Shown: piece after piece, positions 10,824 through 18,597 of the stretch
Layout of the letters: each line of letters begins with the position of its first letter
Position numbering within the stretch: position 1 is the first letter of the stretch
IMG/VR virus record: IMGVR_UViG_3300033998_000245
Coordinates: 1-21,112 of that record
Length of the DNA stretch: 21,112 bases
From: a virus
Direction: 5' to 3' (one strand)
The notes under the pieces: generated by a model
Seen by the model: only the letters and a program-made list of their open reading frames with translations
Databases searched by the model: none
What the model was told of the DNA's origin: nothing
Position numbers and translations under genes: made by a program

Positions 10824-10917
10824 TTTAATCACCTATTATATATTTTCCTCGCTTTTTTTCGTTTTTGCGACTTTATCCTACTAGCGTCTACATTCCGCCT
10901 CCACCAGTTATCGTTAA

Positions 10918-11694
10918 TTAAGTTAAAATTTCAGTAACAATATCTTTTAAACGTTTTGTACTAATCAAGCTTTCATCATCTAGCCATTTTATATATCTTT
11001 CTACAATCCCTTCATGTTCTTGAACAAAATCTTTTAATGCTTTTTTACAGTCTAAATATCTCTGTTTTGGGTTATACCATTCAGTTATTTCACTATCTTT
11101 ATCAGCGAATAAAAGTAGATAGCAATCTAAAAACTCTCCAAATTGCTTCTCTAGAAGATATTTATCTTTTACATACCATCTTTCATTAAACTTACCCCAT
11201 GTACTTTCCCTAATTTTTTCTAATTGATTTTTTTTCTTATTATATTCTGTTATATTAGTTTTTATTGTTTCAAATAAACCCCTGGGGAATAGTTCGTTTT
11301 CCAATCTATTATATAATTTTTCAGTAATTTGAAAGTCTTTTTTAATAGTTTGAAAATCTTCAATAGTTTTAATATTTAATTCATCACCGCAATAATCATA
11401 TACTGCATCTCCCAAATCTTTCTTTATTAAATCATTATAGTTTTTTAATTCTTTAAATCTTCCGTTTTTTATAATCCATACATTATTACAGTATTCATAA
11501 TCAAATACAACAAAATTATCAGGATATTTATAATACAATGTCTTTAGCGGTAATTCATCTCCCTCATTAAAACTTCTCATTCCTCCACCACTATGCCAAG
11601 TGCCTGGTTTTCCTGTAATTATATCTTTTGATTCAAAGATAGGTGTATAAAATATTTTAATTTGCTCCCCACCCAAATAATCGTACATCCCCAT
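10918..11694 (-). CDS. Conserved phage protein of MGMYD type, unknown
   Basis: The 258-residue protein opens with MGMYDYLGGEQIKIFYTPIF, an N-terminus I recall from many phage hypothetical proteins. It continues with beta strands including a glycine-rich WHSGGGMRSFNEGDELPLKTL region, then about 150 residues of charged helix with coiled-coil potential. Codon use matches the neighbours. The gene starts after AAAAGGAGG and lies just downstream of the interrupted CCA gene. Its function is unknown. Confidence 0.7.
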   Translation of the reverse strand: MGMYDYLGGEQIKIFYTPIFESKDIITGKPGTWHSGGGMRSFNEGDELPLKTLYYKYPDNFVVFDYEYCNNVWIIKNGRFKELKNYNDLIKKDLGDAVYDYCGDELNIKTIEDFQTIKKDFQITEKLYNRLENELFPRGLFETIKTNITEYNKKKNQLEKIRESTWGKFNERWYVKDKYLLEKQFGEFLDCYLLLFADKDSEITEWYNPKQRYLDCKKALKDFVQEHEGIVERYIKWLDDESLISTKRLKDIVTEILT

Positions 11695-11748
11695 ATTTAT
11701 TCCTCCTTTTTACACTATAAATATCCACAAATTAAACATCTCAAATAT

Positions 11749-11825
11749 CTACAAAACTTTTTCTTTTACTAACTCCAATAGTTTTTCCTTAGTATTTAAT
11801 TTAGGGTTTTCTAATACTTGCTCAA
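11749..11825 (-). pseudogene. cca: 3' end of the CCA-adding enzyme gene, cut off by the insertion
   Basis: The 77 bases left of the element read in the original frame as LEQVLENPKLNTKEKLLELV and a short tail to TAG. This is the usual C-terminal helix of clostridial CCA enzymes. Joined to the part ending TTAC at 13552 they give 1332 bases, exactly 444 codons, and the target junction is TTAC/TTGAG. This piece has no start or ribosome site of its own. Confidence 0.85.
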
Positions 11826-11974
11826 TTGACACTCCCCATGACTAAAGTTAGGGGATTCTTGGGAGATTAAATGCCAATCCATTTCTGGTTGACAAGTATG
11901 ACCCAAAGTTAAGGGTGTGCCATCACCCCTCCCTAGGCAGGTCATATAGACCCTAGGGCTGGCAGACTATCGCT
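11826..11974 (-). ncRNA. Candidate omega-RNA of TnpB
   Basis: TnpB guide RNAs come from the 3' end of tnpB through the right end of the element, and their guide is the flanking DNA. This 149-base non-coding segment is strongly foldable: CCCTAGG pairs with CCTAGGG (about 11930-11960), GGGTG with CACCC, TTGGG with CCCAA, and then the right-end hairpin. The flank that would be the guide is TTGAGCAAGTATTAGAAAAC (11825-11806). The exact 5' end, which may lie inside tnpB, is unknown. Confidence 0.65.
11834..11858 (-). repeat. Right-end imperfect palindrome and GAAT guide of the element
   Basis: Minus strand: GAAT (11858-11855) then CCCC-TA-ACT-TT-AGT-CAT-GGGG (11854-11834), four bases, then TCAA at the tip. 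This matches the IS608 right end in the known pairing of GAAT with the TCAA cleavage site. Confidence 0.85.
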
Positions 11975-13024
11975 TTACGCTACACCATCTACCACAGGTG
12001 CTAACATTATATTCATAGCACCCAATCTATCTCTATGTGTACTAAACCCACATGATTTACATACATACTTTCTATCTCTTGCTTTATTTAAACTTCCACA
12101 TTGAGGACATTTTTGACTTGTATATTTTGGGTTTACATATTCAACTTTTATTCCTTCTAAATTTGCTTTGTATTCTATATATTTGGCGAGACGATAGAAA
12201 GACCATGTATGCAAATTCTTTTTGTTTTTACGGCTTGTTCTTGCCGTGTTTCTAATATTCGCTAAATTTTCTAAACGAATTACAGAAACATTATTTCCCA
12301 CTGCAAAATTTACTATTTGCCTACTTATCTTATGGTCTTGGTCTTTCATCCATCGCTGTTCTTTATCAGCTATTTGCTTAATCTTTTTTAGCTTTTTAGC
12401 TTTACCTAACCTTTGACGCAAGACTTTATATTTACGTCTAATATATTTGTTTTGTCTACCATTACCGAAGAATTTTGTTTTGCCATTATTTATTACTGCT
12501 ACTGCTGGTACTTTTAAACCTAAATCTACACCTATTATATTTTCTCTATTATAAGAAATTTGTCTTTCTGGTACTTCTACAGCTATTTGAGCTATCCATT
12601 TGCCTGATTTTTTAGTTATTCTTAATGTGCCTAAGTTATTGTTGAGTTGTTGTTTTTGATAATCTGTTAGTATTATTTTTACTTTAATTCTTTGTGTTTT
12701 CCCATTAATTACTATAGGAAAACTCAAAAAATCATTTATTTTATAATTTTGATTGTTCCATATACATACTAGTTTTTTTAGTATTGGCAGTTTACTGGTT
12801 TTCTTGTATTTCTTATAAACACTTTTAGCATCTTGTATAGCTTGATTTTTAACCGCACTTGGTAGATTGGCTTCAATATCTTTTGATGTTAACTTTATAT
12901 TTTTATTATTAACTATAATTTGTACTATATTATTTACTATGGATGTATACTCATTTAGAGTTTGTTCTAAATATTGTTCTTGTTCTTTAGTGGGTAGTAT
13001 TTTAAATTTAACTGTTAATTTCAT
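11975..13024 (-). CDS. tnpB: TnpB, RNA-guided RuvC nuclease of IS200/IS605 elements
   Basis: TnpB is the compact ancestor of Cas12. It uses omega-RNA to cut DNA beside a short target-adjacent motif. The 349-residue protein keeps all RuvC residues: Asp167 in IIGVDLGLK, Glu252 in RLENLA, Asp332 in HRDRLGAMNI. Cys306, 309, 322 and 325 form the zinc ribbon between the second and third motifs. At 349 residues it is somewhat shorter than the usual 370-410, and the N-terminal domain looks trimmed but intact (MKLTVKFKILPTKEQEQYLE). The start ATG has GGTGGTGAATT upstream, 14 bases after the tnpA stop. It appears functional although its partner transposase is dead. The motif it should recognise is TTAC, the insertion site. 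Confidence 0.92.
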   Translation of the reverse strand: MKLTVKFKILPTKEQEQYLEQTLNEYTSIVNNIVQIIVNNKNIKLTSKDIEANLPSAVKNQAIQDAKSVYKKYKKTSKLPILKKLVCIWNNQNYKINDFLSFPIVINGKTQRIKVKIILTDYQKQQLNNNLGTLRITKKSGKWIAQIAVEVPERQISYNRENIIGVDLGLKVPAVAVINNGKTKFFGNGRQNKYIRRKYKVLRQRLGKAKKLKKIKQIADKEQRWMKDQDHKISRQIVNFAVGNNVSVIRLENLANIRNTARTSRKNKKNLHTWSFYRLAKYIEYKANLEGIKVEYVNPKYTSQKCPQCGSLNKARDRKYVCKSCGFSTHRDRLGAMNIMLAPVVDGVA

Positions 13025-13038
13025 AATTCACCACCTTT

Positions 13039-13437
13039 CTATACATTCTTTTGATTTTCTATATATTTTTGTATTGCTTTTTGGCTAATATAACCTACAG
13101 TACAACAAAAATAACTTCGTGTCCAAAGTGAAGGTATTCTACTTCTTAGTTCTGGATATTTATTTCTTAAAATTCTACTACTTGCTCCTTTGAAATAACG
13201 TATTAATTTATGTAAAGGCTGTCATGGGTCAAAACTTATAAATAAACGGACATGGTCAGGCATTATTTCTAATGCTTTTATTTCAACATTTTTTTCTTTA
13301 GCAATATTATAAAATATTTGTCTTAAATCTTTTTCAATATCACCAACCAATACTTTACGTCTGTACTTAGGACAAAACACTATATGATATTGATTGAGGT
13401 ATACTATACCTTCTTTATGTGTATATTTATCATTCAT
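13039..13437 (-). pseudogene. tnpA: TnpA (Y1 HUH transposase) with nonsense and active-site mutations
   Basis: TnpA cuts and joins single-stranded IS608-type ends. The 133-codon frame is whole in outline: YHIVFCPKYRRKVL, MPDHVRLFI, KGASSRILR, LWTRSYF and the tyrosine nucleophile (codon 125, KYIENQ). However, the second histidine of the HUH motif is Arg (codon 64), and codon 72 is TGA (13224-13222), probably from CGA. The frame ends TAG at 13041-13039, just before tnpB. The start is ATG 13437 after GGTGGTGAATATCTA. The protein is almost certainly inactive. Confidence 0.9.
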
Positions 13438-13448
13438 TAGATATTCAC

Positions 13449-13492
13449 CACCTATCTAATTATAATATAACATAATATTAGATAGGTGTCAA
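13449..13492 (-). promoter_or_regulatory. tnpA promoter overlapping a perfect inverted repeat
   Basis: TTGACA (13492-13487) and TATATT (13469-13464) are 17 bases apart. A perfect 12-bp inverted repeat, CACCTATCTAAT (13488-13477) and ATTAGATAGGTG (13460-13449), flanks the -10 region. Its downstream arm contains part of the tnpA ribosome site (GGTGGTG). A transcript from this promoter would lack the upstream arm. A read-through transcript from the cca gene would fold and hide the site, as known for IS200. An operator function is also possible. Confidence 0.55.
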
Positions 13493-13511
13493 GTATCTAA
13501 TAAGCCTTCAT

Positions 13512-13536
13512 CCCAGTAACTAAAGTCATGGGCTTT
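13512..13536 (-). repeat. Left-end imperfect palindrome and AAAG guide of the element
   Basis: Minus strand: AAAG (13536-13533) then CCCA-TG-ACT-TT-AGT-TAC-TGGG (13532-13512). The distance from the TTAC/element junction to AAAG is 15 bases. This is the left-end architecture of IS608, whose AAAG guide pairs with TTAC. Confidence 0.85.
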
Positions 13537-14806
13537 CGGCTAGATTTCTTTGTAAATTATTTAGTATTTCTCCCATTTTTCTTCCTGGTTTAATACCTAT
13601 TCCCATTAAATCATATCCGTTAATATCTAAGTCTCTTATTGTTAATGGATGTTTTTCGTTTAATATTTTTTCTACTTGTTTTCTTAAATTTAAAATTTTA
13701 CTAAAATCATGTGGTGGTTTACTTCCCTTAATATCGGCAATTTGTAACTCAAAAAGATTATTTAAGTTTTCAATACCTACTCTACTAATAAATTTCTTAA
13801 TACTACTTGTTTTTAGGAAATCATATTTATTCATATGTTCTCTTACCAAAATACATACTTTTTCTATAGTTTCATTATCAAATTTTAATCTTTTTAATAT
13901 TTTCTTTGTTAATATTTCACCTTCAATATGATGTTTATAAAAATGTCCCACTCCATTATTACCAATAGAAAAAGTTATTGGTTTACCAACATCATGCAAT
14001 AAAGCTGATAATCTTAAAACTAAATTATTTGGTACTTCATCTAATACAATCATAGTATGTTCAAAAACATCTTTAAAATGGTTGGGGTTTAATTGGTCAA
14101 ATTTTACCATTCTCTCTACTTCAGGCAATATTTCATTAAGCAAACCTGTATCTCTTAATAATTTTATTCCCCTACTTGGATATTGAGAAATTAATATTTT
14201 AGACAATTCGTCATTTATTCTTTCTTTACTGATATTGTTGATTAATTTTTTGTTTTTTACTATCGCCTCATCTGTATTTTTATCTAATAATAAATCTAAT
14301 TGACAAGCGAATCTTATTGCCCTCATCATTCTTAAAGCATCTTCTTTAAACCTATCATCAGGACTACCAACTGCTTTAATAATTTTATTTTGTAAATCAT
14401 TTAAACCATCAAAAGGATCAATTAAACCCTCTTGTTGATTATATGCCATAGCATTAATAGTAAAGTCTCTTCTACCTAAATCTTCTATAATATTAGAAGT
14501 AAATTTAACTTTATCCGGTCTTCTATTGTCTGAATATTTCCCATCAATTCTATATGTAGTTACTTCATAATTTTTATTATCTAAAATAATTGTAATAGTA
14601 CCATGTTTTAAACCTGTAGAAATTGTTCTATATTCTTTAAATACATCTAATATTTCTTTAGGTAAAGCATTAGTACAAATATCCCAATCCTTAGGTTGCT
14701 TATTTAACAAACTATCTCTAACACAACCTCCTACAATATATGCTTCATAACCTTGTGATTGTAAAATATTTATTATTTTATCAGCACCATTATCAATTTT
14801 AATCAA
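13526..14806 (-). CDS. cca: CCA-adding tRNA nucleotidyltransferase with HD domain, 3' end disrupted by IS
   Basis: This class II nucleotidyltransferase would add or repair the CCA end of tRNAs. Motifs: VGGCVRD (25-31), DWD metal site (40-42), EDLGRRDFTINAMAYN (109-123), then an HD domain with LSALLHDVGKP (His271, Asp272). The element ends the real gene after codon 418; the present frame adds eight foreign residues and stops at 13526. The missing 25 residues lie at 11749-11825. The start is TTG 14806 in a TTGA overlap with the next nucleotidyltransferase, with AGGAGTG upstream. Poly(A) polymerase is an alternative, but the clostridial CCA pattern fits better. The core catalytic part remains, so some activity may survive. 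Confidence 0.9.
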   Translation of the reverse strand: MIKIDNGADKIINILQSQGYEAYIVGGCVRDSLLNKQPKDWDICTNALPKEILDVFKEYRTISTGLKHGTITIILDNKNYEVTTYRIDGKYSDNRRPDKVKFTSNIIEDLGRRDFTINAMAYNQQEGLIDPFDGLNDLQNKIIKAVGSPDDRFKEDALRMMRAIRFACQLDLLLDKNTDEAIVKNKKLINNISKERINDELSKILISQYPSRGIKLLRDTGLLNEILPEVERMVKFDQLNPNHFKDVFEHTMIVLDEVPNNLVLRLSALLHDVGKPITFSIGNNGVGHFYKHHIEGEILTKKILKRLKFDNETIEKVCILVREHMNKYDFLKTSSIKKFISRVGIENLNNLFELQIADIKGSKPPHDFSKILNLRKQVEKILNEKHPLTIRDLDINGYDLMGIGIKPGRKMGEILNNLQRNLAESP

Positions 14807-15807
14807 CTTATAACACTCCTATTAATTTCAATAACTAATTCATTAATTTTATTAAAATCTGGTTTTTTAGGCAATGGAGAATTTTTTGAAGCATATTCAA
14901 ATTTCTTTTCTAATTCATCTGCCATTTCAAAAATTTCCTCATATGTATATTTACCATTCCTGATATCTATTAATAAATCATGTTCTTTTTCTCTAAAAGT
15001 ATGAATTCCTTTGCCTTCTAAGATTTCAGTACCCATAATTAACAATCTAATTAAATGCATTGCATGTTTATTTAATCCTTCTTCTGTTTTCTTTTTATTT
15101 CTTTGAGTTAATTTACTATAACCTTTAACTATACTACTAAATTCTGAATAAATATTTTTAAAATCTCTTAATGGATAATGTTTTAATTCTATATCCATAA
15201 AAATTTCAGTATCATAATCTTCTTTTTCTGATTTGTCAATATATAAATTTAATTTACCATTAGCAATTTTTGTATAATGTTCCTTAATATAATACATCTG
15301 TTTTTCAATACTTTTTAAAATATGTTGTTCTTTTTCTGTTTGTAGACAACTATTCCTTGCTAATGCATTTCGCAATCTCCTTAATTGTGCTGTGGCATAC
15401 CCGCCAAAAGTATATTTAGCTTTTTGGGACAAAAATAAATCAACATTATCTAATAATAATTGCCCTTCTTTGGTTAAAATAATATAATGCTCTGGTTTAC
15501 AGCCTAACATTTCAATCATATTAGGATTACAATTGCTCATTAAACTAACAGCCTTTCTTAAACCGAAAATTGTAGTGTCGGTTTTCTCATCCACTCTTTG
15601 TTCAAAATTCGTTAATCCTAATAAGTCTGTTTCTCTTTCTAAAGCAATTCCCCTAATATCCACATCAGAATTTTTATTATTAGTACCATAAGCATAACTG
15701 CCACCTAAAACCAATAAAATAATATTACCTTTTAAATGCTGGTTTTCAAAAAGAAACCTATACTTATTATCATTAAAAACCATTTCTTTAATCTGATTAA
15801 CTTCCAT
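14803..15807 (-). CDS. Pol-beta superfamily nucleotidyltransferase (RNA-repair type, YcgL-like)
   Basis: The 334-residue protein carries GGSYAYGTNNKNSDVDIRG (35-53), the GS...D-x-D metal-binding signature of the PF10127-like family, followed by HYIILTKEGQ and a helical C-terminal domain. These proteins are found beside RNA ligases, CCA enzymes and phage tRNA-repair genes, and are thought to move nucleotides onto RNA or DNA ends. The gene overlaps cca by four bases, a strong sign of joint function. The start ATG has AAGGGGAAGG upstream. The substrate cannot be told from the sequence. Confidence 0.82.
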   Translation of the reverse strand: MEVNQIKEMVFNDNKYRFLFENQHLKGNIILLVLGGSYAYGTNNKNSDVDIRGIALERETDLLGLTNFEQRVDEKTDTTIFGLRKAVSLMSNCNPNMIEMLGCKPEHYIILTKEGQLLLDNVDLFLSQKAKYTFGGYATAQLRRLRNALARNSCLQTEKEQHILKSIEKQMYYIKEHYTKIANGKLNLYIDKSEKEDYDTEIFMDIELKHYPLRDFKNIYSEFSSIVKGYSKLTQRNKKKTEEGLNKHAMHLIRLLIMGTEILEGKGIHTFREKEHDLLIDIRNGKYTYEEIFEMADELEKKFEYASKNSPLPKKPDFNKINELVIEINRSVIS

Positions 15808-16350: not shown

Positions 16351-16965
16351 TTATGCCAATTCTACTTTAAACTCATCTGGTCTCTCTATTACAGTTATTC
16401 CTTCTATAATTTCACCATCAGCTGATACTGCTCTATTCCCTGCTGTCTTTATAACCTTTTTTAAATCTCCCCACTTAGGCTTTTCTTTTATTTCTATATA
16501 ATCTCTCATATTTCTTTCTTTAAGCCATTCAAGTAATTTATCGTCTTCTCTTTTAAATTCTGGTTCTCGTTTTTTAAGTTTAAGTTTGCCAGTTGGTAAC
16601 TTATATGTCTTTTGAGTTTTAGTTTTTTTCAATACCTTGTCATCAAGACTATTAAAATACTCATAAAGTTTAAATTCAAAAAAATTAACTGTCCTATTTC
16701 GTTCCTCTTCTGCTTTTTGAAGTGCATTTTGAAGTTGTTCTATTTTTGCTTTAACTACCATTTCAAATCTGTTATATTCAGCATTAGCCTCACGAATAAT
16801 ATCTAATGCCCAATCAGCTGTATTATCATCAGTTATTTTCCATTTTTCTTTTTCTTCCTCATTATTAATATCTATATCAAGATTTTCTAATGCTAAATTA
16901 GCTATTATATTATTGACATAATTTTCCCTTTTATTAACCTCCATAGTACTTCTAAAAACCTCCAT
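16351..16965 (-). CDS. gam: Gam-like DNA-end protecting protein
   Basis: Mu Gam family proteins bind double-stranded DNA ends and block host exonucleases; they are related to Ku. The 204-residue protein has the long helical arm (ADWALDIIREANAEYNRFEM through an ERNRTVNFFEFKLYEYFN region) and the beta C-terminal half (TYKLPTGKLKLKKREPEFK, then WLKERN, and a final GEIIEGITVIERPDEFKVEL). The start is uncertain: ATG 16965 overlaps the previous stop by 14 bases and has only a weak site, while ATG 16944 has GGAGG 14 bases ahead. It lies among recombination genes, as Gam usually does. Confidence 0.85.
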   Translation of the reverse strand: MEVFRSTMEVNKRENYVNNIIANLALENLDIDINNEEEKEKWKITDDNTADWALDIIREANAEYNRFEMVVKAKIEQLQNALQKAEEERNRTVNFFEFKLYEYFNSLDDKVLKKTKTQKTYKLPTGKLKLKKREPEFKREDDKLLEWLKERNMRDYIEIKEKPKWGDLKKVIKTAGNRAVSADGEIIEGITVIERPDEFKVELA

Positions 16966-17547: not shown

Positions 17548-18597
17548 TTACAACGTTTGAACTTTTTCTAAAAGTGCTTTTGCTACTTCTATATCTTCAA
17601 TTTTATTTGGATTAACAGTGCCTATTTCTTGTTTAAATATTTCACTTATTTCTTCTTTAGTTTTTTTACCCTCTTTTACTTTTTCTTTGGCAGTATCAAT
17701 TATCTGTCTAATAAGTTGATCTAAATTTGGTTCTCTATCTTTAGCTTCTTCTAGATAAGCTTCGACTTCCTTCTCTTTTTCTTTTGCTTGTTCTTGTTTT
17801 ATCTTTTTGACATCTATTCCTTCTCCTAATGCATTTTGTACTGCCTTTTCAAAAGTTTCAATAAACAAGTCTACATCATAATCTATCCTGTTAGGTACAG
17901 TTTCAAACCTACTACCAGCTTCCAGGTCTGCACCTTCTGCTCGGAAATAAATATATCTTTTATCTATTAGTTTTTCTCCTTGTTTTTCTTTCGCAATATC
18001 AATAAATACGATAAAATCTGCAATGTTTAGCACTATATCTCTTGCTGTACTAGGAAGAGAACAAGTAGTTTTGTCATAAGATATACCATCTCTACTCTCG
18101 AACTTCTTATCTTTATCATGAGTTAATATCCAAAGTCCATAGCCTGCTTTAATTATTCGTTCTAGAGTTGACTGCATTTCACTAGATACCATTGAATATC
18201 CTTTACCATATGCTATATCAGCAATATCCTGGATATTTTTACCTGTTTTTCTTCTTTCCTGTCTACAAATATAATCTGCTGCATATTTATACATTATATC
18301 TGCTGTGTCTATTGCTATTGTTTTATAGGGAAGTTGAGCTTTATATTTTTCCAATTGATCAAGAACATTTAAAAAATCTTCCCAACAATTAATATCTTGA
18401 GCTACTACCTTCATTGCTTGATACCCTTTTTCAAAAGCTAATAAAAGTCCGGCTTGAATATTGCCATAAAACTTTTCAACCATTTTAGCAAATAAACTAG
18501 TTTTTCCAGATTTGGGACGACCATAAACAGTAAATACATAATCCTCAATATTAGCCTTGGGAATATTAGGTTGCAAATTTAAAAGATTTATACTCAT
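17548..18597 (-). CDS. P-loop ATPase of phage recombination type (AAA_24/Sak4-like)
   Basis: The 349-residue protein has Walker A GRPKSGKTS (26-34) and Walker B KTIAIDTAD (92-100), then WILTHDKDKK, a RecA-like sensor strand. The C-terminal third is a long charged coiled coil (KKIKQEQAKEKEKEVEAYL). Proteins of this layout are common in phage recombination blocks, next to SSB and exonuclease genes, and include the single-strand-annealing ATPase Sak4. Here SSB is directly upstream and Gam is downstream. Sak4 itself is shorter, so the exact name is uncertain. ATG 18597 follows AAAGGAGTGGTG. Confidence 0.8.
   Translation of the reverse strand: MSINLLNLQPNIPKANIEDYVFTVYGRPKSGKTSLFAKMVEKFYGNIQAGLLLAFEKGYQAMKVVAQDINCWEDFLNVLDQLEKYKAQLPYKTIAIDTADIMYKYAADYICRQERRKTGKNIQDIADIAYGKGYSMVSSEMQSTLERIIKAGYGLWILTHDKDKKFESRDGISYDKTTCSLPSTARDIVLNIADFIVFIDIAKEKQGEKLIDKRYIYFRAEGADLEAGSRFETVPNRIDYDVDLFIETFEKAVQNALGEGIDVKKIKQEQAKEKEKEVEAYLEEAKDREPNLDQLIRQIIDTAKEKVKEGKKTKEEISEIFKQEIGTVNPNKIEDIEVAKALLEKVQTL

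What the first reader, a model, noticed from the sequence alone, without database searches (positions are those of the whole stretch)
11806..13024. TnpB guide RNA should target the empty cca allele, next to TTAC
The flank that would serve as guide is TTGAGCAAGTATTAGAAAAC, and in the uninterrupted gene it sits directly after TTAC, the expected target-adjacent motif. TnpB has all catalytic residues. It would thus cut element-free copies in co-infecting or sister phages and promote copying of the element by repair, a homing-like drive that does not need TnpA.
Basis: partly seen in the sequence, partly recalled or inferred. Interest (0 to 1): 0.72.

Follow-up and report, generated by a model that had tools for sequence, protein, structure and literature searches.

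The report
Phage IS605 element with TnpB guide
A small jumping gene sits near the end of a phage's cca gene; its own transposase is broken, but its RNA-guided nuclease and guide-RNA scaffold look intact and would recognise copies of the gene that lack the insert, which is a known trick of this transposon family seen here inside a phage.

Summary
A 1,726-bp IS605-type element (+ coordinates 13551 to 11826, minus strand) interrupts a phage cca gene. Its ends are defined by homologous insertions, whose DNA identity stops at TTAC on the left and TCAA on the right. Joining the flanks gives a 443-codon cca reading ...TTAC|TTGAGCAAGTATTAGAAAAC..., and phage CCA homologues align across the join. The cleavage and guide motifs (TTAC, TCAA, AAAG, GAAT) are those of IS608.

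TnpB keeps the RuvC triad D167/E252/D332 and a four-Cys zinc ribbon. The right end encodes a strongly covarying RNA scaffold that closes with a pseudoknot one base before the guide. That scaffold is the best new evidence that the flank is a real guide.

TnpA is dead: its HUH motif reads HVR, and codon 72 is a stop. The loss looks recent, so TnpB integrity does not show TnpA-independent selection.

Cleavage, transcription and homing remain untested. No element-free allele of this cca was found in any collection searched, and the one co-linear sister phage lacks cca. TnpB-guided attack on empty sites, and TnpB gene drive in plasmids, are already published. This is a new member of a known kind, in a phage.

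The parts
13526..14806 (-). cca (tRNA nucleotidyltransferase) 5' part; 418 native codons, then an LE-encoded tail QRNLAESP and stop
   Evidence: Pfam PolyA_pol, RNA-binding, HD domains; PHROG 2244; joined ORF
13552..13555 (-). TTAC: insertion target and predicted target-adjacent motif
   Evidence: IS608 CL = TTAC (PMC5934647)
11826..13551 (-). IS605-type element, 1726 bp, LE to RE
   Evidence: ends set by homologous insertions
13512..13536 (-). left-end guide AAAG plus imperfect palindrome IPL
   Evidence: same motif as IS608 GL
13464..13492 (-). LE promoter-like site TTGACA-17-TATATT with TG before the second hexamer (11 of 12)
   Evidence: consensus match only
13449..13488 (-). hairpin over the tnpA ribosome-binding region, formed only by RNA entering from upstream
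   Evidence: fold z = -3.6; also in L005 and L063
13039..13437 (-). tnpA (Y1/HUH) pseudogene: HVH to HVR at codon 64 (13248-13246), stop TGA at codon 72 (13224-13222)
   Evidence: intact in L005, L011, L039, L063
11975..13024 (-). tnpB, 349 aa, RuvC triad D167/E252/D332, four-Cys zinc ribbon
11826..11993 (-). predicted omega-RNA scaffold (3' end of tnpB plus RE)
   Evidence: covariation on 29 relatives; window RNA fold; start inferred
11834..11858 (-). right-end guide GAAT plus imperfect palindrome IPR
   Evidence: same motif as IS608 GR
11917..11922 (-). pseudoknot 5' strand (hairpin loop TGGCAC)
   Evidence: cols 75-80 pair with 199-204 in all 29 sequences
11827..11832 (-). pseudoknot 3' strand (RE terminus GTGTCA), one base before the guide
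11806..11825 (-). guide: first 20 nt of cca 3' remnant
11749..11825 (-). displaced 3' end of cca (25 codons and stop)
   Evidence: joined ORF aligned with phage CCA homologues across the junction

Best explanation
This is an IS608-like IS605 element that inserted 3' of TTAC near the end of a phage cca gene and has since lost its transposase. Shown from sequence: exact ends, TTAC, the restored cca frame in the empty site, an intact TnpB ORF with catalytic residues, a covarying guide-RNA scaffold ending at the flank, and a dead tnpA. Inferred: transcription from the LE promoter (or read-through of the cca operon) gives a tnpB mRNA whose 3' end TnpB processes into an omega-RNA with the cca flank as guide. 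The TnpB complex then cuts TTAC-TTGAGCAAGTAT... in element-free cca alleles. Repair from an element-bearing genome copies the element in, or the cut genome is lost; either way the element-bearing allele is favoured.
For: Ends and empty-site reading. TTAC/TCAA/AAAG/GAAT identical to IS608. RuvC triad and zinc ribbon; PDB and fold matches to Cas12f and TnpB. Scaffold: 99.0% of cells paired, 103 double-change cells against 24.7 in shuffles and at most 10 in slid controls; the RE terminus pairs with a hairpin loop in 29 of 29, with C-G to G-C in five. LE promoter and no minus-strand terminator in 10850-13700. Published chemistry: TnpB cuts TAM plus guide match (PMC8612924), makes its guide from its own mRNA (PMC10278001), and TTAC works as a TAM for SfaTnpB (PMC12781874). 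The phage encodes a Sak4-like annealing protein and a Mu Gam-like end-protection protein.
Against: No RNA or cleavage data. No element-free allele found in any collection searched. The co-linear sister phage lacks cca. Window TnpB has a few substitutions at otherwise conserved positions, such as P85L, so activity is not certain.
Confidence: 0.66

Rival explanations
1. Inert relic: the element stopped moving when tnpA died, and TnpB or its RNA is now inactive or unexpressed; the guide match is an automatic result of how IS605 inserts.
For: tnpA has two lesions. The TTAC-guide adjacency is a necessary outcome of TnpA insertion, so it is no sign of use. TnpB carries P85L, T179I and E244G at positions otherwise conserved among close relatives.
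Against: tnpB is open, its triad is intact, window comparisons give dN/dS 0.08-0.16, and 28 of 29 scaffold pairs are kept in the window. tnpA death looks recent, so there has been little time for decay, which weakens this evidence.
Confidence: 0.22
2. Exclusion rather than homing: TnpB destroys element-free competitor phages carrying the cca allele, with no copying of the element.
For: The same cutting step is needed. In the plasmid study the superinfection assay used RecA-deficient cells and cutting alone biased element-bearing plasmids (PMC11870625).
Against: The phage encodes its own annealing protein and end-protection protein, which would favour repair; no data here separate the two.
Confidence: 0.25
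3. The element still moves, with a transposase supplied in trans by an intact relative in the same cell, and TnpB only prevents loss after excision.
For: IS608 recognition motifs are kept at both ends. Intact 85% relatives exist in another phage contig and in bacterial genomes.
Against: The LE palindrome has C where relatives have T at the bulge, and the RE stem has a G to A change breaking a pair, so recognition may be weakened. No second copy lies in the 21-kb record.
Confidence: 0.2
4. TnpB has been adopted by the phage as an RNA-guided regulator, like the TldR proteins.
For: Phage-encoded TnpB-derived regulators exist (PMC13418256).
Against: TldR proteins are nuclease-dead (own knowledge); here the RuvC triad is intact, and the guide is the insertion flank, not a promoter.
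Confidence: 0.03

Closest known systems
IS608 (ISHp608), IS605 group of the IS200/IS605 family
   Same: tnpA then tnpB in the same direction; cleavage sites TTAC and TCAA; guides AAAG and GAAT; subterminal palindromes
   Different: tnpA here carries an HUH change and a nonsense codon; it lies in a phage cca gene
ISDra2 TnpB and reRNA/omega-RNA (PMC8612924, PMC10097598)
   Same: RuvC triad, zinc finger, guide at the RE-flank junction, pseudoknot in the scaffold, target-adjacent motif equal to the insertion site
   Different: TTAC instead of TTGAT; by sequence this TnpB scores closer to Cas12f than to ISDra2 TnpB
TnpB gene drive of IS elements in plasmids (PMC11870625)
   Same: element-bearing molecules attack element-free ones through the recorded flank
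   Different: shown experimentally for plasmids; here only predicted, for a phage, with dead tnpA
SfaTnpB (PMC12781874)
   Same: TnpB with a 5'-TTAC target-adjacent motif
   Different: a detection-tool study, not a phage element; sequence similarity to this TnpB was not compared
Phage homing endonucleases (SegB, T4 HEGs)
   Same: would bias inheritance through cutting element-free alleles
   Different: RNA-guided, so specificity is rewritten at each insertion

Membership tests
IS200/IS605 family, IS605 group | Y1/HUH TnpA gene present | tested here: met
   Y1_Tnp hit E 3.7e-19; gene is now a pseudogene
IS200/IS605 family, IS605 group | functional HUH motif and uninterrupted TnpA | tested here: not met
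   HVH to HVR and stop at codon 72; four relatives intact. Membership rests on descent, not activity
IS200/IS605 family, IS605 group | insertion 3' of a fixed tetranucleotide without target duplication | tested here: met
   TTAC in 5 of 5 readable LEs; joined cca in frame
IS200/IS605 family, IS605 group | subterminal palindromes with guide sequences | tested here: met
   AAAG/IPL 13536-13512, GAAT/IPR 11858-11834, as in IS608
TnpB / OMEGA RNA-guided nuclease | RuvC D-E-D and zinc-finger domain | tested here: met
   D167, E252, D332 and four Cys invariant
TnpB / OMEGA RNA-guided nuclease | structured scaffold from the tnpB 3' end and RE with pseudoknot | tested here: met
   covariation and pseudoknot
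TnpB / OMEGA RNA-guided nuclease | guide RNA transcribed into the flank | not testable with these tools
   needs small-RNA sequencing
TnpB / OMEGA RNA-guided nuclease | TAM-dependent DNA cleavage | not testable with these tools
   needs a biochemical assay
homing element / gene drive | element-free alleles of the target locus exist | tested here: inconclusive
   none found in the viral contigs or 398 genomes searched; homologous cca genes exist but have diverged
homing element / gene drive | biased inheritance in mixed infection | not testable with these tools
   needs phage crosses

The most novel reading that the evidence does not exclude
A phage-borne IS605 copy that has lost transposition lives on as an RNA-guided homing element, spreading only by TnpB cutting of empty cca alleles in co-infecting phages and repair by the phage's own Sak4/Gam recombination proteins.
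Probability: 0.27. Interest if true: 0.55.

Novelty: new member of a known kind. Interest (0 to 1): 0.36.

Why it matters
If it works as predicted, it extends the published TnpB gene drive from plasmids to phages. It would also show that a phage can carry a self-reprogramming homing nuclease after transposition is lost. The site is well defined, so a single test can decide: one TAM, one guide, one target gene. The scaffold with its terminal pseudoknot gives a concrete RNA to synthesise, and no Rfam family matched it.

Tried and rejected
Exact 19-mer TTAC plus 15 nt of guide in IMG/VR: one match (L078), in an unrelated gene of an unrelated phage, taken as chance. Degenerate TTAC-LLE.VLENP pattern: none. 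Guide with up to 2 mismatches in 398 genomes: 8 matches against 8 for the reversed control, none in a cca gene. Search for sister phages by AAA/Sak4, DnaB and dNMP-kinase proteins: one co-linear sister, G005/L089, without cca. Rfam: nothing relevant. tRNAs that might explain the cca gene: none in the window. dN/dS as a test of TnpB-specific selection: uninformative, because tnpA has the same low ratios, so its death is recent. The count of RE ends used a pattern containing TCAA, so it is not independent evidence for TCAA; the alignment ends are.

Full report
What is there. The record is a 21,112-base viral contig with nearly all genes on the minus strand. Those genes include DnaB helicase, primase, a Sak4-like annealing protein, a Mu Gam-like protein, a dNMP kinase, a DNA methyltransferase, an RlaP-like nucleotidyltransferase and cca. 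An IS605-type element interrupts cca near its 3' end.

Ends and empty site. The closest relatives (84-86% TnpB identity) are inserted at unrelated places, and their DNA similarity to the window stops at the same points. On the right it stops at 11825/11826 in 21 loci. On the left it stops at 13555/13556 in L005, L011 and L039, that is, including the TTAC. All five readable left ends are preceded by TTAC. Removing the element joins ...AATAATTTAC to TTGAGCAAGTATTAGAAAACCC... and restores a 443-codon cca. Phage CCA homologues of 42-48% identity align through the join: LLEQV against LLDVV, LLEEV, LLEYV, ILEIV and LLNGV. The TTAC/TCAA cleavage sites and AAAG/GAAT guides are those described for IS608 (PMC5934647; positions). 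It is also what any IS608-like insertion gives automatically, so the adjacency alone is not evidence of function.

Guide RNA. Twenty-nine right ends from independent insertions were aligned. RNAalifold finds 32 pairs, 18 of them with double changes. For a 29-pair structure including a pseudoknot, 99.0% of cells pair. There are 103 double-change cells, against 24.7 (sd 3.9) in column shuffles and at most 10 when the partner is slid. Helix 1 alone has six covarying pairs. The last bases of the element, GTGTCA, pair with a hairpin loop TGGCAC in every sequence; in elements ending GTCTCA the loop is changed to match. The scaffold thus closes one base before the flank. ISDra2 omega-RNA is reported to form a pseudoknot that is conserved among Cas12 guide RNAs (PMC10097598). 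The window keeps 28 of the 29 pairs, and its RNA folds better than shuffles (z = -2.8).

Nuclease. D167, E252, D332 and the four cysteines are invariant in 19 relatives. The best solved matches are Cas12f proteins, followed by ISFba1 and ISDra2 TnpB. The model is moderate (pLDDT 76, pTM 0.48), so the fold matches are supportive only.

Transposase. tnpA reads HVR in place of HVH and has TGA at codon 72. L005, L011, L039 and L063 are intact. Pairwise dN/dS for tnpA with the window is still 0.05-0.10, so the gene was under constraint until recently. For that reason the intact tnpB cannot be used as evidence that TnpB is kept without TnpA. The window's LE palindrome (bulge T to C) and RE palindrome (G to A, losing a pair) also differ from relatives, which may reduce rescue in trans; this is inference.

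Expression. A promoter-like site (11 of 12, with TG before the second hexamer) lies in the LE, and no minus-strand terminator is predicted between it and beyond the flank. These are consensus matches only.

Targets. The guide match in the donor is preceded by TCAA, and no TTAC followed by a close guide match exists in the window, so the donor should be spared. Five phage cca homologues carry 7-11 mismatches over the 20-nt site. In ISDra2, double mismatches in the first 12 positions abolish cutting (PMC10097598), so only near-identical alleles should be targets. None was found: searches gave only chance matches. The one co-linear sister phage (G005, DnaB 66% identical) has no cca. The cca gene is therefore accessory, and the size of the target population is unknown.

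Compared with what is known. TnpB cutting of element-free sites next to the insertion motif was shown in 2021 (PMC8612924). Guide production from its own mRNA was shown in 2023 (PMC10278001). A TnpB gene drive between plasmids was reported in 2025 (PMC11870625). TTAC has been confirmed as a TAM for SfaTnpB (PMC12781874). From memory, Meers et al. 2023 showed TnpB-driven transposon retention; that paper is not held here. The finding is a well-supported instance of this known kind in a phage. The part that would be new, a transposition-dead copy living by homing among phages, is possible but untested.

Noticed in passing
13449-13488 (-): A hairpin in the LE covers the tnpA ribosome-binding region; its 5' arm lies upstream of the expected start of the LE promoter transcript, so only RNA reading in from cca would form it. 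It could block tnpA translation from outside transcription. Also present in L005 and L063.
   Followed up: partly
13526-13551 (-): The LE supplies a short tail and stop codon (QRNLAESP*) to the interrupted cca, which loses only its last 25 codons, so the enzyme may still work.
   Followed up: partly
16351-16965 and 17548-18597 (-): Mu Gam-like end-protection protein and Sak4-like annealing protein close to each other: a phage recombination module.
   Followed up: no
14803-15807 (-): RlaP-like nucleotidyltransferase directly upstream of cca, overlapping it by four bases, suggesting an RNA repair pair; no tRNA gene is in the window.
   Followed up: no
L005 (IMGVR_UViG_3300020032_000002): Another phage contig (38% identical Sak4-like protein) carries an 85% identical element with intact tnpA at a different site, next to a gene's stop codon: this IS family circulates among phages.
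   Followed up: partly
11826-11993 (-) and 28 aligned relatives: The covarying RE RNA of this TnpB clade has no Rfam match in the window and could found a new family.
   Followed up: partly
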